Below are positions 39,408 to 64,000 of a stretch of DNA of 64,000 nt, piece by piece (the first letter of the stretch is position 1; each line of letters starts with the position of its first letter). The notes under the pieces were generated by a model. That model ran no database searches, was not told the DNA's origin, and saw only the letters and a list, made by a program, of their open reading frames with translations. Source of the DNA: Mesostigma viride (taxonomy: Eukaryota > Streptophyta > Mesostigmatophyceae > Mesostigmatales > Mesostigmataceae); contig RPFO01000106.1 in the NCBI GenBank assembly GCA_009746045.1, positions 1,852,211 to 1,916,210 on the forward strand, in the 5' to 3' direction. The position numbers were made by a program, and so were the translations under genes.

Positions 39408-42400
39408 CTAGGAGAGTGTCGTGTACAGCTTGCGGGCCCTCGTCTTGCCGCTGCCCGTCGCGAGCACCACACGGCGCTGACTCAGCACATCCAGCCCTAC
39501 GAGCGCGGCCGGGCCAAGATACGGCCGCGTGCCATCCCCCAACAGCTGCGAGAACACCGGCAAATCCGCTACCGCGACCTGGACGGTGTCCCACGGCTTC
39601 CACCCCGGCGGGGGGAGCTTGAACGTGAGGTCCCTCCCCCCCGCAGGGTCCCTGACCGCGTCTCCGACATACGACAGTTGTAGTGGGTGCGTCGGCAGCG
39701 GCAGCGGCCGCCCGTCCACCCCGACAGAGAACAGCTTGGGCGCTTTATCCCACGACTTGTCCCCCTTGGGGGGCAGTCCCAGCAGCGCCGCAGCGGCCCA
39801 GTTCACGGCCGAGAACGAGGCCCCGCAGTCAAGGATGCCGACAAGAGGCTGAATGGAGGTGGTCCCATCGGGGCGGCCGCGCGCGCCCGCCGCGCTGACA
39901 GCTGGCGCGGTCACGCGGATGCCCAGCAGGCCCGTCTCGTTGAGCACGGCGGCAGGGACCTCGATCAGCCCGTCCGCCGCGGCCGCCTCTACGCCCTGGC
40001 CAGGGACCCAGAACCGGAGCCTATCTTTGGGGAAGTCAAGGTCCGTGTCGAACATGGACAGGAGCTCCATGCCGAGCATGCCTTCTACGGGGTCGTGGTC
40101 CGGGTCCAGGTGCTCCTGGGGGAAGTCGGTCACGACTGCAGTGAGCTGAGGAAGCGGCAGCTCGCGCGCGCCCGGCTGGGCAAAGGTGCCGCAGCAGAGC
40201 GACGCGCCTGTCAGGGGGATGATGTCGCCCTGGGCCACGGCGCCGCCGGCGCCGAGGCCAGAGACCTTTTTACCGTTCAAGTCGACGGCCAGGCCGAGCG
40301 TGGACCGCAGGTGGGGAGTGATGAGCTCGCCCGTGAGGCCTGAGTCGACCTGAGGGAGTGCCAGGGACGAGGGAGGGGCATGAAGAGAAAGGGACCATTA
40401 AGAGGAGGGAGAGGGCATCGAAGGGGGGGGCGTGGACGGGGGGCCCGCATGAAGACAAGGGGCATGGAAGGGGGACGGTTAGTGGATGGATGGATATGAT
40501 CGAGGGGACATACTCGGCAGCATGGTGTAAATGTGCCAATAGGTGCGCCTCACACGGGTGCCACCAGCTGTCAAAGCAGGCAACTTAAAACTAAAAGGCA
40601 CATACTGTGCCGAGAGAAGAAACCACTGCGAATCTCTTGAAAAAATATTTAGTAGTATATATAGTAGTATATATATTCATTCAATGAGAATGAGTGTCCC
40701 ATGCCGGCTGTAGTTGTTTTGTCGTGGTATCTCTTGTTACAGTGTTACAGCGTTGGCTTTCTTTATTTTTACGTGGGTGCCTTTACTCTGATGTAAGTAA
40801 TTATATTTTTTAATATATATTCATTGAGAATGATAAGTTACAGAGGTGAGAATGGCATGCAACAGAAGGAAATCAAACCCCGAAAAGGAGAACCCTCAAG
40901 ACAATAATAAGAATCCGACACGGGCATGCAAGGATCAAGCCTGGCAGCACAAGGTACATGCAACTCACGACAACACCAATCTACGACACGCAGCAACACC
41001 TCTGCGGGCCCACCAGGCCGGGGAAGTGACCTACACTGCCTAGGTCGCAACAAAGTCGGCCCGGACGCGGCGAAATTACACATCAGCCACCGTGCGAGTG
41101 AGGGCGAGGGACAGGCGCTGCCGCCAATACGATATATATAAGATACTTATATAAATACAAGATACCACTACTTGAATTGCAAGCATATGTAGTCTATGTA
41201 ACGTCAAAGTCGATGCGAACCCAACCCAAGGCTTCACGAGGGCAGCCCCTTCTCTCTGCGCGTGAGGGCCCGCGAGGAGTAGGGGGCGTGGCGAGAGGCC
41301 AGGACACCCAGTGGCGTGAACCGTTCTCCAAGTGCACGTTGCATCCCTGACATACAGATAGGATCGATGATGTGAAACCGTACCGAGTAGGTGGCCTACG
41401 ATAGCTAGGGCTGGCTAGTGGAAGGCAAGGCAAGCATGCATGGTTTGCACAATTGGTGGCACAATGGGTAATCCCAAAGGGTGGAAAAACACTAACAATA
41501 CAAGTTGAATCTGCCGCAACTGTGGTAATAATAATTATCTTCCACGGGCTGTACCACATGTCAAGCCATTTCAGTCAACCTAACCTTGCTTAGGAACTTA
41601 TAAATGGAAGGTGCCCATGTCACCCTGAGCACACTTTCTGGGGACACGCGGCGAAACGGCCTGCCAGCTGGCAGTTATGGAGGGATGCTGCCTAAAATAT
41701 TGCTAGGGAGGATGCACTTTGACTAAATAGCCTGCTCTCTACTTCGGTAGCTGGTGACTCGATCGTGTGCGTGCACTAGAAAGGCATTGTGCAATTAAGT
41801 CTTAGCGTGGTGCATTCATGATCAAGGCATACTGACAAAACAGAAAGACAACGCTACCCTAGTAGGCAAACGATACCAAAAGACATGAAGTCACAAGGAA
41901 ATGGGGATCGCTCATTTGGGGCTAGGAAGGGAGGAGGACATATATATATTCATTGAGAATGGTAAATTACGGAGGTGAGATTGGCATGCAACATAAGGAA
42001 AACCCCAAAAAGAAGAAGAACCCTGAAGAAATTAATAGTAATCGGACACGGACATCCAAGGATCACGCCAGCTGCACAAGGTACAACTAACTACATCACA
42101 AAACTACGGCACGCAGCAACATCGCTGCCGGCCCACCATGCAGGCCTGGGAGGGATCTAGACCGCATGGGTCGCGACAAAGTCGGCCCGGGTGCGGCGGA
42201 ATAACACATCAGCCACGGTGCGAGTGAGGGCGAGTGACAGGCGCTGCCTACATATATGCTCATCTCACCTCCGTAATCTATCATTCTCAATGAATATATA
42301 TATGCTCCGCAGCCGAGACGGCAAGGCGACAGGTATCCCGTACGTACCATGAAGTCGAAAGGTCCTTTGCCTTGAATTGTTAATTGGACAAGGATATAGT

Positions 42401-52466: not shown

Positions 52467-53512
52467 ACAGCTGTCACGTCCGTGATCATTTACGTCCGTG
52501 CACTCAAGAAGTTACGCGGTTCGGAATCGTTACCGACGTTTGGTTGGTTCCGATTCAGTAGGCCGCAGGCTTTGTTCCTTGGGCCGGTGTGGAGCGCCGC
52601 GCCGGAAAGGCCTGAATTTCTAGAGTGACAGTCTTAGGTGACCTGACTTAGGTTCAGGCGCAAGACTTTGGGGCGCAAAGCCTTGGTGGCTTGCGCAATA
52701 TTCCGGTGCGTGACATTTGGCAGTTATGAATCTTTTGTATTGTTCAGACGGAATGATGTTCAGTCCATCTGACAAAGCTAGATACGCAGATCGTAGTGTG
52801 CGGTGTGCTGGCTCGCACGTGGTTGTCGAACAGACTTGCTCTGCATTTTGCTGGCAGTCTAACTGCACGTCAGGCGGCTTGCTGGCAAATGCGACAGCGC
52901 ATGGATGCCGGGATTTTTGGAGGTATTTAGGAGCAGCGCAGCGGCCATGGTGGTCGTTGTTCGCTCGTTTCTCTCCCTCACAACTAGTTTGTTGTCTTCA
53001 TGGGGTTAAACTTCTCGAACAGCCCGGAGCAGCCCCCGTGAGTGGTTGCATGTCGTTGCCATGACGATGGTTGATAAGATTGACAATGGTTTGATCCGGT
53101 TGGGATGTTGTTGGCATTGTGGACGAGAAACGTTCTGCTGACCCGGGAACAGTCCCGGGAAAGGGCCGGTTCGTCGTTGGCCAGTGTGCCAGTAACTGGG
53201 ACATGAGCGCAGAGTCACACAGTTGATATAGATTATGACGTAAGTAAACACTGTTGCGCCACAGTGGCGTCATGGTCGGTCTGTGGTGATTTCGATGGGT
53301 CTCAAGGATATGTAGTTACTCTTACAGTTGCGGCAGCACAACTCGGCATTCATTGTAATTTGTCAAATGTTATGGAATGAATGGTTTGGGCATTGCTTTC
53401 ATCATAAAGCATTATTGCAATCTTCATAATATAAATATCGGCTGGCTGCGCTGCCTGTCATGAAGGTGGTGGTGCCGTCAAGGACCACACCTATCATTTC
53501 CACATTATTTAA
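52467..53512. repeat. 1.05-kb repeat, copy A (full)
   Basis: 1046 bp, nearly identical to 54535-55580. It starts acagctgtcacgtccgtgat and ends ccacattatttaa. It contains a perfect 7-bp stem, cccggga-acag-tcccggg, near 53138. Its open frames (for example 52717-53064) match no known family. If read on the minus strand, the 1033 bp from TGTGGAAATG to GTGACA have LTR-like TG/CA ends, but shared flanking bases outside those ends argue against simple LTR borders. Confidence 0.9.
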
Positions 53513-53516
53513 ACGA

Positions 53517-54132
53517 GACAGCGCATGGATGCCGGGATTTTTGGAGGTATTTAGGAGCAGCGCAGCGGCCATGGTGGTCGTTGTTCGCTCGTTTCTCTCC
53601 CTCACAACTAGTTTGTTGTCTTCATGGGGTTAAACTTCTCGAACAGCCCGGAGCAGCCCCCGTGAGTGGTTGCATGTCGTTGCCATGACGATGGTTGATA
53701 AGATTGACAATGGTTTGATCCGGTTGGGATGTTGTTGGCATTGTGGACGAGAAACGTTCTGCTGACCCGGGAACAGTCCCGGGAAAGGGCCGGTTCGTCG
53801 TTGGCCAGTGTGCCAGTAACTGGGACATGAGCGCAGAGTCACACAGTTGATATAGATTATGACGTAAGTAAACACTGTTGCGCCACAGTGGCGTCATGGT
53901 CGGTCTGTGGTGATTTCGATGGGTCTCAAGGATATGTAGTTACTCTTACAGTTGCGGCAGCACAACTCGGCATTCATTGTAATCTGTCAAATGTTATGGA
54001 ATGAATGGTTTGGGCATTGCTTTCATCATAAAGCATTATTGCAATCTTCATAATATAATCGGCTGGCTGCGCTGCCTGTCATGAAGGTGGTGGTGCCGTC
54101 AAGGACCACACCTATCATCACCACTTAATTAA
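53517..54132. repeat. 1.05-kb repeat, copy B (right-hand 60 percent)
   Basis: Begins at gacagcgcatggatgccggg, equivalent to 52893 in copy A, and follows A directly. It differs from A and C at a few sites (gtaatctgtc, a deletion in taatataatcgg, and the end caccacttaattaaa). A and C share their variants, so B is older or from another source. Confidence 0.88.
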
Positions 54133-54216
54133 AACGAGCGAACAACCCTTGGCGGGTTCAGTTCGGACAGCCTGAGCCGGAGATATACCCAAGCTGCTTG
54201 CAGAATCAAGCACTTG

Positions 54217-54352
54217 GAAGAGGATTAAGCTTATCCTTTAAAAAGCTATGAAGAGGATTAGGCTTATATATATCCTTGAAAAAGCCATGAAGAGGATTAT
54301 GCTTATCCTTGAAAAAGCACTGAAGAGGTTATTGCTTAGCCTATTTGAAAAG
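54217..54352. repeat. Imperfect tandem repeat of gaagaggatta units
   Basis: Three to four units of about 45-50 bp containing gaagaggattaagcttatcc and ttgaaaaagc. Non-coding. Confidence 0.7.
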
Positions 54353-54465
54353 CATGTGTGGTCCTGTCGTGGGAATTTTTTTTTCCCTATGTGATCCTCT
54401 TTTTGACTTTTTGGCTCTTCATTTTTTCGAGCTAAAAAGTGGGGGGGAATATAGTGGATCACACA

Positions 54466-54534
54466 CAAGAGTACTCTATTGCTATGGATATGCCTTCCAA
54501 GTGATAGGCTAGGATATAATGGCACGCAAACGCG
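54466..54534. repeat. 70-bp direct repeat X flanking copy C, left
   Basis: agagtactctattgctatgg through acgcaaacgcgaca; repeated at 55587-55657. The two copies bracket repeat copy C, consistent with unequal exchange or gap-filled insertion rather than a normal target-site duplication. Confidence 0.85.
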
Positions 54535-55580
54535 ACAGCTGTCACGTCCGTGATCATTTACGTCCGTGCACTCAAGAAGTTACGCGGTTCGGAATCGTTA
54601 CCGACGTTTGGTTGGTTCCGATTCAGTAGGCCGCAGGCTTTGTTCCTTGGGCCGGTGTGGAGCGCCGCGCCGGAAAGGCCTGAATTTCTAGAGTGACAGT
54701 CTTAGGTGACCTGACTTAGGTTCAGGCGCAAGACTTTGGGGCGCAAAGCCTTGGTGGCTTGCGCAATATTCCGGTGCGTGACATTTGGCAGTTATGAATC
54801 TTTTGTATTGTTCAGACGGAATGATGTTCAGTCCATCTGACAAAGCTAGATACGCAGATCGTAGTGTGCGGTGTGCTGGCTCGCACGTGGTTGTCGAACA
54901 GACTTGCTCTGCATTTTGCTGGCAGTCTAACTGCACGTCAGGCGGCTTGCTGGCAAATGCGACAGCGCATGGATGCCGGGATTTTTGGAGGTATTTAGGA
55001 GCAGCGCAGCGGCCATGGTGGTCGTTGTTCGCTCGTTTCTCTCCCTCACAACTAGTTTGTTGTCTTCATGGGGTTAAACTTCTCGAACAGCCCGGAGCAG
55101 CCCCCGTGAGTGGTTGCATGTCGTTGCCATGACGATGGTTGATAAGATTGACAATGGTTTGATCCGGTTGGGATGTTGTTGGCATTGTGGACGAGAAACG
55201 TTCTGCTGACCCGGGAACAGTCCCGGGAAAGGGCCGGTTCGTCGTTGGCCAGTGTGCCAGTAACTGGGACATGAGCGCAGAGTCACACAGTTGATATAGA
55301 TTATGACGTAAGTAAACACTGTTGCGCCACAGTGGCGTCATGGTCGGTCTGTGGTGATTTCGATGGGTCTCAAGGATATGTAGTTACTCTTACAGTTGCG
55401 GCAGCACAACTCGGCATTCATTGTAATTTGTCAAATGTTATGGAATGAATGGTTTGGGCATTGCTTTCATCATAAAGCATTATTGCAATCTTCATAATAT
55501 AAATATCGGCTGGCTGCGCTGCCTGTCATGAAGGTGGTGGTGCCGTCAAGGACCACACCTATCATTTCCACATTATTTAA
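54535..55580. repeat. 1.05-kb repeat, copy C (full)
   Basis: Same length as copy A, offset by exactly 2068 bp, and essentially identical to it. The hairpin cccggga-acag-tcccggg is kept. Confidence 0.9.
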
Positions 55581-55586
55581 CATGTA

Positions 55587-55657
55587 TAAAGAGTACTCTA
55601 TTGCTATGGATATGCCTTCCAAGTGATAGGCTAGGATATAATGGCACGCAAACGCGA
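55587..55657. repeat. 70-bp direct repeat X flanking copy C, right
   Basis: Second copy of the segment at 54466-54534, preceded here by catgtata. Confidence 0.85.
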
Positions 55658-56158
55658 CACAGCCACGTGTCCATGCCACGACTGCTCTAGTCCAGCACCG
55701 TCCCAGCACCCAATTGGGCGCCGGCGGTGCTGGCACGTGTCCACTTAGGCTACAGGCGGGAGACTTAGACTAACTCCCACTTTAAGTTTTCTTTGGGTTT
55801 CAACAGAAACACACATAGCCATCAAATGGACGCAGCCATTCCCAATGCCTTAAAAAAACTGTCAGATAACCTACTAGGACCCAAAGGTCACCTCACACAT
55901 GTACAAGAGATGCATTAAAAAGGCCCCATGTCTCAAGCATGGTTTCTTAACTGAGTGAGATGGGTGCTCCAGGCCCCAGCATGTCATGGTCATCCAAACA
56001 AGTGTCTCACAAAATTTATTCAATAAATAACACATTCATCATGTCCCAACTTTCTAGACCAGTGCTTCTCACTGTCAGAAAACTACCCAGCTGCCACTGC
56101 AGCCTTTCAGCTGCAGTATTAGGCAGGGGGTCATGGGCTAACATGTACAATGTGCCAG
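55658..56158. other. 3' region of copia-like element 1
   Basis: No ORF. On the minus strand, downstream of the RNase H stop, aaagtgggagttag (plus 55768-55781) looks like a polypurine tract, so a 3' LTR may begin there. I could not find its partner. Confidence 0.4.
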
Positions 56159-57121
56159 TCACTTCAGACTGTAACCAGGGTTCATCAACCCATACAAGAC
56201 CTGGTATTGTGGTCCTGCTGCTTGTGGCACCTTGGTCAGTGCATCTGCAGCATTGTCTTTGTCCCTGACGTGGGCTTTAGACTCCAGGTACTTGCATTCC
56301 TGTTTTAGCACAATCCAATCCAGGTCCGAGTGTACAGCCAAAGGATTGGCAAGGAAAGAGATGATAGATTGAGAGTCAGTCAGCAAATGTGCTTTCACTC
56401 CTGCAGAGCTACCAGCCTGGTGTTGAAGCCAGACCAGCAAGTGATTGAGATACCTTGCATGCAAGACAGAAGATACCACAGCCCTGCATTCAGCTACATT
56501 GCTACTCACAGCTTTCCTCTTGTGCAATCTACTGAACCAGGAGACTAGTGACTTCTTCCCACCTTGGTTATGCAGGAAAAACAATCCAGCCTCTCTGGCT
56601 TGAACCTTGGTAACTACCCTGGACTCCATTGAACTATCCATCATGCACGTGATGTGAATGGGAGTAAACAGGTCCAGTGAGTGAAGCATCAAAGGTGGAC
56701 CATCATGCAACAACTGCTTGATTGCCCGTGCTCCTACCTCCTGTAGTACCTCATCATCTACCCTGCTCACAAAAGCCAGGTGGGGTGCACATGTAGCACA
56801 TAGCCAACCAAGCTTGCCTCTAATGGTAGGGCACATGTCAGGGGTGATGTGAACAGGCAGGACATCCAGACAAGACTTAATGTATTCAGCAGAGGCCTGC
56901 ATGGAACAAACCCAGCTGCCCTGCTGCTGCAGCAACTCAAGCATCATGCCACAGAACTTGACTGGCTCCTTGCCCAGCTCTAGCTGCTTGCCAATCTCAA
57001 AACTGGCAGACACCTGAGCTATGAAAGCATCCACTGCAGCTCTAGGACCTGAGATTAACTGATCATCCCCATGCCAGACAAACATCATCATTCCATCAGG
57101 GTGTGGGATGACAAACAGCAA
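56159..57121 (-). CDS. Copia-like element 1: end of RT and RNase H
   Basis: 320 codons from an internal open frame; the true protein continues from the upstream ORF. Residues 17-20 read HGDD (plus 57062-57073), where Ty1/copia RTs have YVDD. Then comes the RT thumb (GKEPVKFCGMMLELLQ) and RNase H, with CMMDSSMES, NVAECRAVV, LLTDSQSI and DNAADALTK supplying acidic residues in the right order. It overlaps the upstream ORF by 34 bases in another frame. Element 2 reads through this point in one frame, so a simple frameshift mutation is the likeliest cause. Confidence 0.85.
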   Translation of the reverse strand: MLFVIPHPDGMMMFVWHGDDQLISGPRAAVDAFIAQVSASFEIGKQLELGKEPVKFCGMMLELLQQQGSWVCSMQASAEYIKSCLDVLPVHITPDMCPTIRGKLGWLCATCAPHLAFVSRVDDEVLQEVGARAIKQLLHDGPPLMLHSLDLFTPIHITCMMDSSMESRVVTKVQAREAGLFFLHNQGGKKSLVSWFSRLHKRKAVSSNVAECRAVVSSVLHARYLNHLLVWLQHQAGSSAGVKAHLLTDSQSIISFLANPLAVHSDLDWIVLKQECKYLESKAHVRDKDNAADALTKVPQAAGPQYQVLYGLMNPGYSLK

Positions 57122-60100
57122 GGGTCAATGTCATCATAGGTGGCCCCTAGCTTCATGAATACCTCCTGTGCAGACAGCCTAAAAATTTTTGGAGCTGACT
57201 GCAACCCTTCAACCCCCAGGTTTGGCCTCAACAAGGGTTGAACAATATCCCTGTGCCACACCTTAGGAGTATTCACCACGTATACCTGACCTCTCCAGAC
57301 CTGCTGTGCTATGGCAGGGTCCCCCTTTAGAAAGGCTCTTTTGATATCTGTGGCTTTACACACATAATCCTTCCCTGTATTAAGCTGATGCAAAAACAAG
57401 GAAAGCAACACCTTGAGAGACGTTTGCTGAATACCAGGAGTATAAAGCTCAGCCTCTGTCAGCTCTGTAGAGCCCCTGAACTCAGTAACACATGGCCTAG
57501 CATGGAAAATGGGTGGTCCCCCATCAGCCTGAGGTTTATGCTTGCACACAAACTTTAACCTTAGCTTCTTGGCTCCAGCTGGCATAGCATCAAGAGGAGT
57601 CACAGGTGGTGTGTGTGTGGGACTACGTGCATCTGGAACAACCCACTCCTCCCTGGCTTTGGTAAAAGCCTCCAGCCACTTAAGAAACCCAATCTGCGTC
57701 TGGCAGTCCCGTACAATATCATCATAGGACAGGGGAGACATGGATGCAACATCCCATCTACCAAGCCCAAACGCTGAAGGGTGTAGCTTTTGAGAGTGTA
57801 TGAGGTCCTCCACACACGGTTCCTGACCTGGGAGGTACTTGGGCTTAACTGCATTGATGGCAGCATCCAACCCAGTGCTAATCTGGCTCAAAGGGATTTT
57901 AAAATGATCTAGAGGCACCTGTCCTACCCCTGCCACACTCAACCTCCCAGCTGAGATGACAACACCAGGGTAAGATACAAAAGGTTCCCCTAACAGGGCA
58001 TTCCCTGAGTAACCCTCAACCACCTGAAATGGAGTGGGCATACCCAAGATTTGAATGCTCACCTGACCTTTGACCTGCATTTTGGTTTTGCCTGAAAAAT
58101 CTGACACTCTAGCCCATGGTGAGGCCTTCATTTTCAGACCAGATACAGCTGCTGCACTGATGATACTCACCTGTGCTTGGGTGTCTACAGCCAAAATACT
58201 AGGATCTTGACCTGCATCCCCTACAGCATTGACCTGTGCTGTACCTGTTGCCACAACTGCTTTAGTGTTGTGTGCCTTGTGCAAGGCCTTAAGAATCTCA
58301 GCAAATGACTTCCTGGGAACGACAGGATCTGCTCTATTTTGTGACTCCTCCAGGTGTGAGGGAGGTGCTACCTGCTGCTCACCCTGTGCACCGTCCTCCT
58401 GCCCAGGTGGACTATTGGGTTGTAGTGGGGCTGCACTACTGAGGAACACAGGAGCTTCTACTGTGGTGCTAGTGCTTGCATCAATGACGTCCTTAGCCAA
58501 TTCATTGGGTGAGATCAATCCACCAGACTCCTGCTCTGAATCCATGTCCAAGAATTCTACCCCTGACACGTCTGCCAGTGGTGGGTAATAAAGCTTGAGT
58601 CTATGCTTGCTGACCACACGCTCTCTGTCATGTTGTATAGTGACTGCAGTCCCTTCTTCATGAATTTTGGTGACTACAGCTGGACCGTGCCATCTGGCAG
58701 AGTGTGCTCTTCCTCTGTCACCCTCTCTGAAAAACAACACATGGTCCCCCACTTCAAACACAGGCCTGGCATTATTTTTGTCTTTCTTTGCCAGCAACTT
58801 GGCTAAGTGCTGCCTTTGTGTGTTGTAGTGAGTGTGTACCTCTGAAGCATAGCTGCCTGACTGAAGGCCAGTTGGGGTGATTTCCCCAAAAGGTGAGGAC
58901 ATTATTGGTTTGGCGTTTAGCTGGGTAGTCACCCCTGCTGCCCAAGATGCCCTGTCAGCATAGCTACCAGAGTCAGCCAACCTGGATGGCATTTTTCTTA
59001 TCACATCCCTGATGGCTCTCATGGTACGTTCTACCAACCCCTGACGTTCATGATCTTGAGCCCCAGACACTTCTATCTTGGGCAGGTCATTCCTGTCCTG
59101 GATGCAGAGAAACTGCTGATCCAGCATTACTTTTTCAATGGGGTGAAAACGTGCCAAGGCTATCTGTAAAGCTCTGTGCAGCTGCTCTTTATCCATCCCA
59201 GGCAGGGGCTCCACTACCACAAACCTTGACCAGGCATCCTTTATGACTAGGTAGTATACCGTGTCCTTCACCACGTGTATAACATCCCCAACCAGTTTGC
59301 CTCTAGCCAGTGGTGGTGTGGCCACATGCCATTTTCTGGGCTTGGGAGCATATAGCTGACATTGCTCACAGTGCTTACGTACGTGCCTGCACGTCTGTTC
59401 CAGGTCATGGCCTTGTATTTTATTGGCTAGCCTTTCAGCCACAGCCTCATGGCCCATAACCTTGTGCAGTTGCTCTGCTAGAGCACCATACGTGATTACC
59501 TTTTCTGCTGCTGCACTAAGGGAAGCTATGGTGGGGTCACGCATCATGTGTGACAGTGTCATGTCATATGCCACTTCCCAATCCACATCATCACACTCAG
59601 GCAACACTTGGCAGACAGAAGGTAACAGGAAACCATTTGTGAAAAATGGTGAGGGTAGCTTACAGGTGTCACCCTGGTCTGCCGCCCCCGCGCGGTTGTA
59701 GCGCCCTGGCGTGGTCTTGTTGTGCCTGGGTGCCGTGCAGCGCGCTCCTGCTGCAATGGGGTGACGTGTTTTCCAGCATCCGGGACAAACATCAACGTCA
59801 GAACCATAGTCGGGTTTGCCCTTCCAGCAATCATCTTTTAGATGCCCCTTACAAAGGCACCTAGTGCAATGTTTGGTGGGGTCATGAGGTAACCTCTTGT
59901 CCCCCCCTGCTGGCTTAGCACCCCCTGGCTTGCTAGCTCCCCCACTTTGTTTTCTGTTTTTATTGTTATTGTTCTTCCCCCCCCCCTTGTTTCCACCTCC
60001 CCCACTTTTGTTGTTTTTGTTTTTATCCCCCCCCATTACCGCCTTTACCTGGGCTACCAGCGACTGCATCTGCTTCTTGGAGAGCCCCGTACCTGAGGCT

Positions 60101-60171
60101 TCCTCCCCCTTTACCTGCTTCACCTTTCCATCCTTGGCTGCAGCAGCAAACGGCTCTAGGCATTGCTGCAC
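57088..60171 (-). CDS. Copia-like element 1: gag zinc knuckle, integrase, retropepsin-like domain, RT
   Basis: 1027 codons. Order: Lys/Gly/Asn-rich basic segment (1-100); CCHC knuckle C102-C105-H110-C115; integrase HHCC (H236, H241, C268, C271); catalytic D296, D351, E381 (QGLVERTMR); integrase C-terminal domain (VGDHVLFFREGD, WHGPAVV, about 473-530); retropepsin-like domain about 655-755 with VDTQAQVSI (D663), VSDFSGKT and ALLGEPF; RT from about 870 with DIKRAFLKGD and GVEGLQSAPKIF. There is no protease between the knuckle and integrase. It begins after a stop, so most of gag is missing. PR after INT, with DTQ, is abnormal for Ty1/copia (PR-INT-RT-RH). Confidence 0.88.
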   Translation of the reverse strand: MQQCLEPFAAAAKDGKVKQVKGEEASGTGLSKKQMQSLVAQVKAVMGGDKNKNNKSGGGGNKGGGKNNNNKNRKQSGGASKPGGAKPAGGDKRLPHDPTKHCTRCLCKGHLKDDCWKGKPDYGSDVDVCPGCWKTRHPIAAGARCTAPRHNKTTPGRYNRAGAADQGDTCKLPSPFFTNGFLLPSVCQVLPECDDVDWEVAYDMTLSHMMRDPTIASLSAAAEKVITYGALAEQLHKVMGHEAVAERLANKIQGHDLEQTCRHVRKHCEQCQLYAPKPRKWHVATPPLARGKLVGDVIHVVKDTVYYLVIKDAWSRFVVVEPLPGMDKEQLHRALQIALARFHPIEKVMLDQQFLCIQDRNDLPKIEVSGAQDHERQGLVERTMRAIRDVIRKMPSRLADSGSYADRASWAAGVTTQLNAKPIMSSPFGEITPTGLQSGSYASEVHTHYNTQRQHLAKLLAKKDKNNARPVFEVGDHVLFFREGDRGRAHSARWHGPAVVTKIHEEGTAVTIQHDRERVVSKHRLKLYYPPLADVSGVEFLDMDSEQESGGLISPNELAKDVIDASTSTTVEAPVFLSSAAPLQPNSPPGQEDGAQGEQQVAPPSHLEESQNRADPVVPRKSFAEILKALHKAHNTKAVVATGTAQVNAVGDAGQDPSILAVDTQAQVSIISAAAVSGLKMKASPWARVSDFSGKTKMQVKGQVSIQILGMPTPFQVVEGYSGNALLGEPFVSYPGVVISAGRLSVAGVGQVPLDHFKIPLSQISTGLDAAINAVKPKYLPGQEPCVEDLIHSQKLHPSAFGLGRWDVASMSPLSYDDIVRDCQTQIGFLKWLEAFTKAREEWVVPDARSPTHTPPVTPLDAMPAGAKKLRLKFVCKHKPQADGGPPIFHARPCVTEFRGSTELTEAELYTPGIQQTSLKVLLSLFLHQLNTGKDYVCKATDIKRAFLKGDPAIAQQVWRGQVYVVNTPKVWHRDIVQPLLRPNLGVEGLQSAPKIFRLSAQEVFMKLGATYDDIDPCCLSSHTLME

Positions 60172-61620
60172 ATAGAGTTAAGCTTTCTTCGCACACGCAA
60201 TGTGAAGGATATGGTTGCAATGCAGCAATATGTGTGATATGGTTGGAAACGGAGCTTTGTTAAATCGGATAATGTTTACAGCGCTCAACACTTGAGGCTT
60301 GCACACGAGCTTGCCAAGTCAAGGCACAACACGTGAGGCGGGCTCGCAAGAGATGCCCATTTGGCACTGGCCTATTGTTTATATACTTGTGCACTGTGCT
60401 TGCTAGTCCTGAGCAGCCTAGGAGGCCTGCTCAGTAATAACACCCCCGGTACAGTATTCACTACCTGTACAGCGCCCAACTCCTATACAGTAGGTCTGCC
60501 ATACAGGCACAGTGACTACAGAGCACAGTCCACAGTGACTATTGCATCTGCACCTAGAAGTCCAGGACTAAGCCTGCGGTACCAACAGACCACAGGTTAA
60601 GGTTCCTATTTCCTGCGTACGACGTATTAATCCAATACCGTCGTAGGTACAGCACCTAATTCCTGTCAGCCCAGGAATTACTGTCGACCCCATATGTCGT
60701 CGGCAAATATTCACGTCCGACTTAGAAGAACAGCCGGCTCGCGCTCGCGCGCGACCGGGAAGTCGGAACGCCATAACTTTCTTGATACTTGTCGGAATGA
60801 ACTCGTTCCGGTGCCGCTGGAATCGCAGAGATATGCCGAATCAGGATCACGCCAATGCGCTTGGCGTTAACTCCAATCCTTTCTTTTCTTGAGCTGTAGC
60901 AGCTCACACAAGTCTACATACAAACACACACAATGGGTACTGGATATCCTCCCCAGACTACAAGTCACAACCCGCTGGGCATGACAGTCAGCTTGGATTC
61001 CTTATTATATGTACATAGCACCCATACTGGCTCAGGAGCACAAACAAATTACAATGAGTCCCTATCCCTTCACGGGAGGCTCGTTGTGTTACCCATGTAC
61101 AAGAGGTTGGCCAACTGTGGCAGCCCATAGGTGTTCAGTTAAGAACTTGAGAAGTATGTACAACCTTCAGGACCTTAGGCGAAACCCCACAGATCACCCA
61201 CAACAGCTCATCAGAAAACATTGCTGACCCCCAGACGGGAGTCGGCGCCGGTCTGCTGCCCCTTATCGAACCAGACACAACATCTACGCGAAGCACATGC
61301 AAAACACAAGCTCCTCTACTCGTTCCAACCGTGGAAAATCAGGGGACCTGTCGCCACCTCACCAGCATGGTGGATGGGTCAGCCAGTCCGTGAAACTCCG
61401 CCTTAAGACGGCACCAGGGAATCGAACCCCGCCCACAAACCACAGATCTGGGGAAACCTCAGACTGAGATGAAAACCCCAGATAGACATCTCTCCATCAG
61501 AGACAATGTCAGACATTCCCACACCAGAGACATGTCTCACCCCTCAAGGTGTGCTCAGGATTATGTACAATCAAGCTCCCAGCCTGATATCCAGAGACTT
61601 AAGCACCCAGCTCTCAGCTT
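60172..61620 (-). other. Region between the two copia-like elements, probably LTR and UTR sequence
   Basis: It should contain the 5' end of element 1 and the 3' end of element 2. On the minus strand AGTATATAAACAATAGG (near 60370-60385) is a good TATA-type promoter pointing towards element 1. CTTGAGGGGTGAGACA (near 61540) could be element 2's polypurine tract. GGGGTTCGATTCCCTGG near 61410 looks like a tRNA T-arm or Pol III B box. I could not pair LTRs, so borders stay open. Confidence 0.4.
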
Positions 61621-64000
61621 TTAGACAGATAGACCGACTTGACAGTCAGCATTCATGAGCTTCCTCAGTACATTGTACTGGGCTGGGGCCTTGTGTGGCA
61701 GCTTTGTCAATGCATCAGCAGGGTTCTCCTCGCCAGGGATATGCTTCAAGTCAACCAAACTGGCCAACTCCTTCAGCAACAAATAATCCAGGTCCCGGCT
61801 CCTGGCCAGCTGCTTGTGAACAAACTGGACCATACCCATGCTGTCTGTTAGCAACAACGTCTCCATCTGCAAGGTCCAAGGGGTAACTGAAGCCAGCTCC
61901 AGCATTAACTCCTTTATGTACAGGCTGGACTGGATCCCCTCGCATATGGCCCTGCATTCTGCCACATCTGAACTGATACAGACCCTCTTCTGCAGTCTGC
62001 TGTACCAGCTGAACAAACTTGCCCTGCTCTGATAAAAAGCAAACAGAGCAGCAGATCTCCCCCTGACCTTGGTAACCTGGCGAGCATCCATGGAACTGTC
62101 AACAAAGATCTCCAAGGTGATAGGCTGGGCAAAGTCAATCCCAGACAAAATCAGATCAGGGGTACTCTCCACCAACCGGGCTATGACTCGAGGCTTCTCA
62201 TCCTCAAGCACCTCATCAGGCATTCTGCTATGGACCATCAAAGACGGACCACAGATGCTGGCAAACCAGGCCCACATGCCTCTCAACTCAGGTCCTGCAG
62301 CCTGGGTGATCTTCTCTGGCAAGGCCTTCACAATGGTCTGTTTATAATCTCCTCCAGCCTGAAGCCTGATACTCCACTCCCCGTCCCTCCTGAACAGGGT
62401 AGCCTGCATTCCACAGAACACTACAGGCTTGTTGGGCTCCTGCCACAGCTCCTTGCCCAGTGAAAACTTGCCACTGATGACAGGAATAAACTTCTTCAGC
62501 CAGGTCGTGGGGGCTAGCAAATGCAGATCATCTCCATGCAAACTAGCATACACTGGCAGACCCTCCCATTGGGCCAGCAGCAAACAGGGATCAACTGAAG
62601 ACACTCTCAAGCCACACTCACTGATCAGAGCTTCCTGCAGCGTGAGTCTCCAGATGATTGGGCTCGACCTGAGTCCTTCCAGGCCCTTCAGAATAACCAG
62701 GAATTGTTGATGCAGCTCCAGCTTCCAGATGGCAGGCACCTCAACACAGTAAGGCTCATCCTGCTTCCACACCCTCCTGGCCACTTCTGGATCAGATTTT
62801 AAAAATGCCCTCTTGAAGTCCAGCAGCACTGATGACATAGCTGCTCCCCTGTTCAGCAACCCCACGTAGAGACATAGCAAAATTCTCCATGTGTCGTGTA
62901 GCATCCCTGGCGTGTATAGCTCCTCTCCTGGCAGACTCCCCGTGCCGTGATACTCATTCAGGACAGGCCTGACATGGGGCACTGATACCTCATCCACAAC
63001 CTTCCTCTTCAGCACAAATCTCAAAGCAAGCTTCCTTGATGCTGGGGGACGTCTGTCTGTTGGTGCAGCACACTCAAACTGCAACCACTCCTCCAATGCC
63101 TTGGAGAAGGCGAGCTTCCAAGCCTCAAACAAAGTAGGCGAGCTCATCTCTTGGACCAGCTGGTCATATGTCAAAGGAGAGTGTGCAGCAAGGCTCCTGT
63201 GAGTTATGCCAATACTGCTGGGGTGCAACACAGCTGGAATAACCAAACTGGCCGCTGGGGGCACCTCCCCTTCATCCCATTTTACACCCTTGACCGGCTT
63301 GGCCCTGCACCTGACTGGAAATGTTGTCCTGAAATTTTCTAGGGGAATCATCCCCCAGCCATCTCTTCTCAGAGCTGTAGCTCTGATAGAAATCCCAGGA
63401 TTGCCCAGAAAATTCTGACCCAAAATCACAGGGCCATCATAGTCCTCTAGGACAAGGAAGGTCACATCCACACCCATGACAGGGGCAGTAACCTCTCCCA
63501 ACACCCTTAGATGCGTCCTACCACTGAAATCAGACACCCAGGGGCAACTTGGTTCTCCGACCAGCAGTTCTCCTGTATGCTGAGGTCCCATGACAGAAAC
63601 CTGTGCATTGGTATCTATCTCCATGGCAGCTACCTCAGGTTCATCCAACTGGACAAGCTTGGACACCTTAGGCTCCTTCTTGGCTCTTTGCAAAGCCTGT
63701 ACAATATCTGATAGACGCACACCCCTAGGCCTGGTGTCGGGCCGTTCCGGAGGTGCAGCCTGTCCGCCTGCTTGCCCAACCACCGTATGTGAAGGTACCC
63801 CAGGGGCCGGGCCAGGGTCACCCTGAGGGCTCGATACAGCTGTAGCACCCTGATCAGGAAGCTCCACGTCACCCCCGCCTTGTACACCAGCGGGCACCTG
63901 GAAGAGGTCTCCTTGATTACCTCCCCGGGGACGGATCTTTGACCAGGACAGACGGTGCACTGCTTGGGAGCCATCAATGGCCACCCAGCACTTATGGCCA
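61621..64000 (-). CDS. Copia-like element 2: integrase end, retropepsin-like domain, RT, RNase H (partial)
   Basis: Runs off the window: the frame is open through 64000 upstream of the first in-frame start-like codon at 63984. The first residues (KCWVAIDGSQAVHRLSWSKI) look like the end of an integrase C-terminal domain. Counting from 63984, a retropepsin-like domain lies at about 115-205 with IDTNAQVSVM (D124-T-N), VSDFSGRT and VILGQNFL. RT follows, with LDFKRAFLKSDPE and GLEGLRSSPIIW, and HGDD at plus 62527-62538. RNase H has FVDSSMDAR, DVAECRAIC, LLTDSMGM and ENPADALTK. A single frame with no stops or shifts suggests recent activity. It is clearly related to element 1 but divergent across most of its length, so the two are separate families. 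Confidence 0.88.
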   Translation of the reverse strand, partial: GHKCWVAIDGSQAVHRLSWSKIRPRGGNQGDLFQVPAGVQGGGDVELPDQGATAVSSPQGDPGPAPGVPSHTVVGQAGGQAAPPERPDTRPRGVRLSDIVQALQRAKKEPKVSKLVQLDEPEVAAMEIDTNAQVSVMGPQHTGELLVGEPSCPWVSDFSGRTHLRVLGEVTAPVMGVDVTFLVLEDYDGPVILGQNFLGNPGISIRATALRRDGWGMIPLENFRTTFPVRCRAKPVKGVKWDEGEVPPAASLVIPAVLHPSSIGITHRSLAAHSPLTYDQLVQEMSSPTLFEAWKLAFSKALEEWLQFECAAPTDRRPPASRKLALRFVLKRKVVDEVSVPHVRPVLNEYHGTGSLPGEELYTPGMLHDTWRILLCLYVGLLNRGAAMSSVLLDFKRAFLKSDPEVARRVWKQDEPYCVEVPAIWKLELHQQFLVILKGLEGLRSSPIIWRLTLQEALISECGLRVSSVDPCLLLAQWEGLPVYASLHGDDLHLLAPTTWLKKFIPVISGKFSLGKELWQEPNKPVVFCGMQATLFRRDGEWSIRLQAGGDYKQTIVKALPEKITQAAGPELRGMWAWFASICGPSLMVHSRMPDEVLEDEKPRVIARLVESTPDLILSGIDFAQPITLEIFVDSSMDARQVTKVRGRSAALFAFYQSRASLFSWYSRLQKRVCISSDVAECRAICEGIQSSLYIKELMLELASVTPWTLQMETLLLTDSMGMVQFVHKQLARSRDLDYLLLKELASLVDLKHIPGEENPADALTKLPHKAPAQYNVLRKLMNADCQVGLSV

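What the first reader, a model, noticed from the sequence alone, without database searches (positions are those of the whole stretch)
57088..64000. Copia-like retroelements with the protease domain moved between integrase and RT, and a DT[Q/N] triad
Seen: in both elements a retropepsin-like segment (D-T-Q/N-A-Q-V-S, then V-S-D-F-S-G-[KR]-T, then L-G-x-x-F) sits after the integrase C-terminal part and before RT. In element 1 nothing protease-like lies between the gag zinc knuckle and integrase. Known: Ty1/copia order is gag-PR-INT-RT-RH and the catalytic motif is DTG or DSG. Inference: two clearly diverged families share both the unusual order and the missing Gly, and element 2 is otherwise intact, so the arrangement is probably inherited and functional rather than a broken copy. 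The domain may be a non-catalytic structural relic, or an enzyme with an altered active site, with polyprotein cutting done some other way.
Basis: partly seen in the sequence, partly recalled or inferred. Interest (0 to 1): 0.82.

Follow-up and report, generated by a model that had tools for sequence, protein, structure and literature searches.

The report
Algal retrotransposons with relocated, altered protease
A group of recently active jumping genes, probably in the green alga Mesostigma, carries its protein-cutting domain in an unusual place and with a normally invariant active-site amino acid replaced, so how these elements cut their own proteins is an open and testable question.

Summary
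Both minus-strand elements carry a retropepsin-like segment after integrase and before a Copia-type reverse transcriptase (RT), with DTQ (element 1) or DTN (element 2) where DTG/DSG is expected. It extends beyond the window: P0001 (72% identical to element 2) has INT-DTN-RT-RH, and a Mesostigma protein, P0008, has DTK just before RT. The host assembly (440 Mb, probably Mesostigma viride) holds at least 57 copies of the element 2 protein; the 57 best candidates, the only ones scored, are 100% identical and stop-free. One full-length copy, L031, has 99.3% identical LTRs and a 5-bp target duplication. No D[ST]G motif lies in its gag, pol or 5' frames, nor in element 1 upstream of integrase. So order and missing Gly are inherited in a propagating lineage. 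Element 2 is nested in element 1's gag. Retropepsin homology is likely, not proven: best Pfam E-values are 0.0029-0.018, under curated cut-offs, two of five crops match nothing, and structure models were too poor (pLDDT 39, 46). Best reading: an RT-fused dimeric aspartic protease with an altered active-site loop; a non-catalytic scaffold is a serious rival. No catalysis was tested.

The parts
57088..60177 (-). Element 1 main open frame: end of gag with CCHC knuckle, integrase, protease-like domain, first part of RT (1029 aa)
   Evidence: landmarks; Pfam rve E 3.9e-5, under its cut-off
56159..57124 (-). Element 1 second open frame after a frame break inside RT: HGDD, RNase H, C-terminal ADALTK
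   Evidence: collinear with P0001 902-1212 at 40%
59827..59868 (-). Element 1 nucleocapsid CCHC knuckle (CTRCLCKGHLKDDC)
   Evidence: sequence
58543..59466 (-). Element 1 integrase: zinc-finger His/Cys pairs and the D, D, E residues are present; C-terminal part near 58698
   Evidence: these columns are invariant with P0001 and L031; rve E 5.1e-6, under its cut-off
57943..58215 (-). Element 1 protease-like domain; DTQ at 58177-58185
   Evidence: gag-asp_proteas E 0.01, Peptidase_A2_2 E 0.018, Asp_protease_2 E 0.17, all under cut-off; alignment
61621..63999 (-). Element 2 pol from the integrase tail to the end of RNase H (792 aa, continues beyond the window)
   Evidence: 57 of 57 scored genomic matches 100% identical
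63355..63642 (-). Element 2 protease-like domain; DTN at 63607-63615
   Evidence: alignment; gag-asp_proteas E 0.25 over a short stretch for this copy, E 0.0029 for its homologue P0001
62527..62538 (-). Element 2 RT motif HGDD in place of YxDD
   Evidence: same in 8 of 8 rows of the alignment that cover it, and in P0003
60176..60872 (-). Element 2 3' LTR
   Evidence: ends like the L031 LTR; junctions located
60171..60175 (-). Target duplication CTATG, element 2 inserted in element 1 gag
   Evidence: same 5 bases before the 5' LTR in L034

Best explanation
These are LTR retrotransposons with a Copia-type RT and RNase H whose pol order is INT-PR-RT-RH instead of PR-INT-RT-RH. The domain between integrase and RT is derived from a retropepsin and is the only protease-like domain found in the element. 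It keeps the catalytic Asp-Thr, the following Ala, a flap-like DF[SA]G segment and the [LI]GxxF segment, but the Gly of D[T/S]G is N, Q or K. Most likely mechanism (inferred): it still works as a homodimeric aspartic protease, one Asp per subunit, with a reshaped active-site loop, and acts while joined to RT, as foamy-virus PR-RT does, releasing integrase and gag parts. Shown: order, residues, absence of another D[ST]G motif upstream of the domain outside integrase in the coding frames read, recent amplification. Inferred: fold, dimer, catalysis, cleavage sites.
For: Order INT-PR-RT read directly in element 1, P0001 and L031; PR next to RT also in P0008 and P0007. Asp-Thr and Ala kept in 4 of 4 distinct sequences covering the motif (elements 1 and 2, P0001, P0008), third residue Q, N, N, K. 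Those four lie on both sides of the deepest RT split (96/95). Element 1 and P0001 (39% identical over this region) each match retropepsin-type Pfam families over nearly the whole profile with the same register. At least 57 identical stop-free copies; 30 of 30 copies read hold DTNAQVS. L031 LTRs 99.3% identical with a 5-bp duplication. No D[ST]G in the coding frames scanned apart from one in element 1's integrase. Foamy-virus precedent for a protease active while fused to RT: PMC6669543, passages.
Against: The Gly of D[T/S]G is near-universal in active aspartic proteases (recalled), and N, Q or K there is expected to disturb the active site. All Pfam scores are below curated cut-offs; element 2's own crop gives only 0.25 over a short stretch and the P0008 and P0007 crops nothing. 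Chance-level Pfam hits from other parts of the same proteins reach 0.039 (6 crops) and 0.012 (Agenet, integrase C-terminal part of L031), so single E-values near 0.01 carry little weight; the argument is the agreement between members. AlphaFold models failed (pLDDT 39.2 and 45.9). Foldseek of the second model lists HIV/SIV proteases in 47 of the 50 rows shown, but none significant (best E 1.3); VIA-align gave no retropepsin. The domain is less conserved than RT (67% against 79% between element 2 and P0001).
Confidence: 0.5

Rival explanations
1. Pseudoprotease: the domain no longer cuts and serves as a dimerisation or assembly module of RT or integrase; polyprotein is left uncut, is cut by a host protease, or gag and pol are made apart by the in-frame stop.
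For: Gly lost in all four sequences and replaced by three different residues; the domain is less conserved than RT; element 2 separates gag from pol by an in-frame TGA, so less cutting may be needed.
Against: Asp and Thr are kept in 4 of 4 across long RT branches, which a non-catalytic scaffold would not obviously need. Element 1 has gag and pol in one frame, so they would stay fused without cutting.
Confidence: 0.3
2. The domain is a relic and a protease is supplied in trans by other elements or by a cellular retropepsin-like protein.
For: A retropepsin-like frame lies in the window at 39408-40397 (Asp_protease_2 E 1.5e-6); LTR elements are 27.9% of the M. viride genome (PMC6947507, passages).
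Against: A relic should decay; the Asp-Thr motif is kept in 4 of 4 sequences.
Confidence: 0.1
3. The segment is not a retropepsin at all, but another small beta-rich domain with a chance DTxAxVS motif.
For: No significant fold match, no PDB sequence match at E below 1, Pfam hits under cut-off.
Against: Retropepsin-type Pfam families are the only hits of the element 1 and P0001 crops (three families and two), over nearly the whole profile; Asp to LG spacing of 65 residues in element 1 (counted by hand) is like retropepsins (61 in HIV-1, recalled); an HIV-1 protease is one of only two PDB sequence hits (E 6.4).
Confidence: 0.1

Closest known systems
Ty1/copia (Pseudoviridae) retrotransposons
   Same: RVT_2-type RT (P0002 E 1.6e-12), integrase upstream of RT, RNase H last, LTRs with 5-bp target duplication
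   Different: Protease-like domain after integrase, not before it; no D[ST]G; HGDD instead of YxDD in RT. The standard order and motifs are recalled
Foamy virus PR-RT
   Same: Protease domain N-terminal to RT with a short linker; the mature enzyme stays PR-RT (PMC6669543, passages) and only integrase is released (PMC8402755, start of abstract in the listing)
   Different: Foamy viruses have DSG and integrase last (recalled); no close sequence relation shown
Ty3/gypsy elements with Ty1/copia-like pol order (Goodwin and Poulter 2002, seen only as a reference-list title in PMC2774666)
   Same: A known case of rearranged pol order
   Different: There a gypsy-like element; here a Copia-type RT with the protease after integrase

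Membership tests
Ty1/copia superfamily | RVT_2-type reverse transcriptase | tested here: met
   P0002 E 1.6e-12 above cut-off, 41% identical to element 2; P0004 2.3e-4 and P0001 0.014 under cut-off; P0007, P0008 none at E 10; window ORFs none at E 1
Ty1/copia superfamily | RT phylogeny placing it inside reference Copia elements | not tested
   No outside reference RTs at hand; tree of family members only
Ty1/copia superfamily | Protease upstream of integrase | tested here: not met
   Element 1, P0001 and L031 have it between integrase and RT; no D[ST]G upstream in the frames scanned
Ty1/copia superfamily | LTRs and short target duplication | tested here: met
   L031: 698-bp LTRs, CTTAC duplication; window copy: CTATG
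Retropepsin (aspartic protease family A2) | D[T/S]G catalytic triad | tested here: not met
   DTQ, DTN, DTN, DTK in 4 of 4
Retropepsin (aspartic protease family A2) | Sequence-profile match | tested here: inconclusive
   Best E 0.0029, 0.01, 0.018, all under curated cut-offs; 3 of 5 members match gag-asp_proteas at E 10 or better
Retropepsin (aspartic protease family A2) | Retropepsin fold | tested here: inconclusive
   pLDDT 39 and 46; Foldseek not significant; VIA-align none
Retropepsin (aspartic protease family A2) | Proteolytic activity inhibited by pepstatin | not testable with these tools
   Needs a bench assay

The most novel reading that the evidence does not exclude
A whole, recently propagating lineage of Copia-type retrotransposons in a streptophyte alga uses, as its only protease, an RT-fused aspartic protease whose active-site Gly was lost in the common ancestor and is now free to vary (N, Q, K): an aspartic-protease active site outside D[T/S]G, in a pol order (INT-PR-RT-RH) that my literature searches did not turn up elsewhere.
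Probability: 0.45. Interest if true: 0.82.

Novelty: new variant of a known kind. Interest (0 to 1): 0.72.

Why it matters
D[T/S]G is treated as an invariant signature of aspartic proteases, and PR-INT-RT-RH as the standard Copia order (both recalled). A successful, recently amplified lineage that breaks both either widens what an aspartic protease active site can be, or shows that LTR elements can propagate with a pseudoprotease. Both are directly testable with an expressed domain. Motif-based annotation would miss the protease of such elements.

Tried and rejected

Considered and rejected: simple broken copy (at least 57 identical copies); protease missed upstream (D[ST]G scan).

Bias: the 57 matches are the best-scored of 8826 first-look candidates, so older or differing copies were not sampled. 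Selection (dN/dS) on the domain could not be measured, since the 30 copies read differ at only 0-2 bases from L001 over 2376 bp. No shuffled-sequence control of the Pfam matches was run.

Full report
What is there. The last 8 kb of the window hold two LTR retrotransposons on the minus strand. Element 1 has a 1029-aa frame (57088-60177) running from the end of gag through a CCHC knuckle, integrase, a protease-like domain and the first part of RT; a frame break then leads into a 321-aa frame with the rest of RT and RNase H (56159-57124). Element 2 (61621-63999) is a 792-aa frame, open at the window edge, from the tail of integrase through the protease-like domain, RT and RNase H.

The two are nested. 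L034 (G000:C1635:1913800-1923700, reaching beyond the window) shows CTATG directly before element 2's 5' LTR, and its 3' LTR in the window is followed by CTATG. So element 2 sits inside element 1's gag with a 5-bp target duplication. Element 1's gag lies on the far side, in a frame of 753 aa whose last residues belong to element 2's LTR. By eye, the TAT codon of the duplication is in the same register on both sides, so element 1 has gag and pol in one frame.

Order. In element 1, in P0001, a 1214-aa public protein 72% identical to element 2, and in the full-length copy L031, integrase precedes the protease-like domain, which precedes RT. In P0008 and P0007 only the protease-RT neighbourhood is seen. 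Integrase residues are kept across the three rows aligned: both His and two Cys of the zinc finger, and D, D, E (their roles are recalled). The Copia nature of RT rests on RVT_2 matches of relatives: P0002 E 1.6e-12 (above cut-off), P0004 2.3e-4 and P0001 0.014 (both under cut-off), with none for P0007 and P0008 and none for the window ORFs at E 1; P0006 also carries a precomputed PF07727 label.

The triad. Four distinct sequences cover the motif: DTN (element 2), DTN (P0001), DTQ (element 1), DTK (P0008, Mesostigma viride); P0007 starts after it. Asp, Thr, Ala, Val and Ser are kept in 4 of 4. Thirty of thirty genomic copies of element 2 that I read hold DTNAQVS, but these were chosen as best matches. 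In the RT tree (9 rows) element 1 and P0008 are split from the other seven rows (96/95), so non-Gly residues occur on both sides of that split; element 1, P0002 and P0008 are long branches and the root is for drawing only.

Is it a retropepsin? Crops of element 1 and P0001 match gag-asp_proteas at E 0.01 and 0.0029 over profile positions 12-89 and 14-91 of 92; element 1 also matches Peptidase_A2_2 at 0.018; both match Asp_protease_2 at 0.16-0.17. Element 2's crop gives 0.25 over a short stretch, with an unrelated family at 0.17, and P0008 and P0007 nothing. All are below the curated cut-offs. As a rough control, six other crops of the same proteins gave only scattered unrelated families at 0.039-0.2 or nothing, but a longer piece of L031 gave Agenet at 0.012, so single values near 0.01 are weak; the case rests on two members, 39% identical here, hitting the same clan over the same span. 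The PDB profile search gave two hits, the second an HIV-1 protease (E 6.4) aligned from flap to LG segment. Structure prediction did not help. I take homology as likely, not proven.

Is there another protease? No D[ST]G occurs in L031 gag, pol or its two 5' frames, in P0001, or in the element 1 gag frame in L034; element 1's long frame has one, inside integrase. A scan of all three forward frames of L031 shows four D[ST]G strings, none of them in those four frames. A spliced or frameshifted protease is not fully excluded.

Is it functional? The host assembly (439.9 Mb) holds at least 57 matches to the element 2 protein, 57 of 57 scored being 100% identical over 792 aa, with open frames of 1068-1198 aa and no stops. 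Over 2376 bp, 30 copies show 5 DNA variants and one protein. L031 is 8090 bp with 698-bp LTRs 99.3% identical and a CTTAC duplication; of eight longer loci compared, it is the only one in which two full LTRs were found. This is a young, amplified family. The matches are the best-scored ones, so the figure says nothing about older copies. The window's own copy has an intact pol frame of 1198 aa but no other frame of 250 aa or more in L034 1-6400.

Host. The assembly size and three Mesostigma proteins of the family (P0002, P0004, P0008) point to Mesostigma viride; the published genome is 441.8 Mb with LTR elements at 27.9% (PMC6947507, passages). This is inference; the assembly is unnamed.

How it may work. 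Asp and Thr kept while Gly varies suggests selection on the Asp, hence catalysis with an altered loop; with four sequences this is suggestive only. Fusion to RT recalls foamy viruses, whose PR-RT is monomeric in solution and is thought to become active by dimerising on RNA (PMC6669543, passages), and which release only integrase (PMC8402755, abstract start in the listing). Isolated DTR, DTE, DTD, DTV and DTA variants are listed among human ERV-K proteases, some classed as potentially active by their authors' rule (PMC6058741, passages with Table 4); they are scattered copies, not a fixed lineage trait. Whether Gly replacement permits activity I could not find in print (one search returned one paper, on docking, seen in the listing only).

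Expression. In 20 of 30 copies the gag and pol frames of element 2 are separated by an in-frame TGA in the context CAT TGA CTT; 3 more have CAT TGA TAT and 1 has CAT TGA CTT 36 bases nearer to the matched part; in 6 of 30 the nearest upstream stop is another one. Stop read-through is a plausible route to pol (inference).

Literature. Searches of the open PMC library showed, in the titles and abstract starts listed, no report of a Copia-type INT-PR-RT order or of a fixed non-Gly triad; of these papers I looked only at passages of PMC2774666. Subscription journals are mostly not held, so this is weak evidence of novelty.

Verdict. Observation confirmed, inheritance supported, enzyme status open. 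New variant of a known kind, interest 0.72.

Noticed in passing
window 62527-62538 and 57062-57073: RT motif C reads HGDD in all 8 rows of the alignment that cover it (elements 1 and 2, P0001, P0002, P0004, P0005, P0006, P0008) and in P0003, where YxDD is expected; a second unusual active-site change fixed in the lineage.
   Followed up: partly
L031 257-954 and 7649-8346: LTRs end in AGTTAACG...CGTTAACT (AG...CT) and not TG...CA.
   Followed up: partly
L031 3248-3250: In-frame TGA between gag and pol; 24 of 30 copies have a TGA after CAT as the nearest stop upstream of pol; possible read-through.
   Followed up: partly
L031 1119-1960: About 1.1 kb between 5' LTR and gag holds two overlapping open frames (177 and 207 aa) without Pfam match; possibly an extra protein.
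   Followed up: partly
P0005, P0007: Proteins labelled Prorocentrum lima (a dinoflagellate) are 86% identical to Mesostigma P0004; mislabelling, contamination or transfer.
   Followed up: no
window 39408-40397 (minus): Retropepsin-like frame with two lobes (DSG and DCG), Asp_protease_2 E 1.5e-6.
   Followed up: partly
window 52467-55659: Nearly identical long direct repeats (98-100%, up to 1046 nt) next to element 1's 3' end, a local rearrangement.
   Followed up: no
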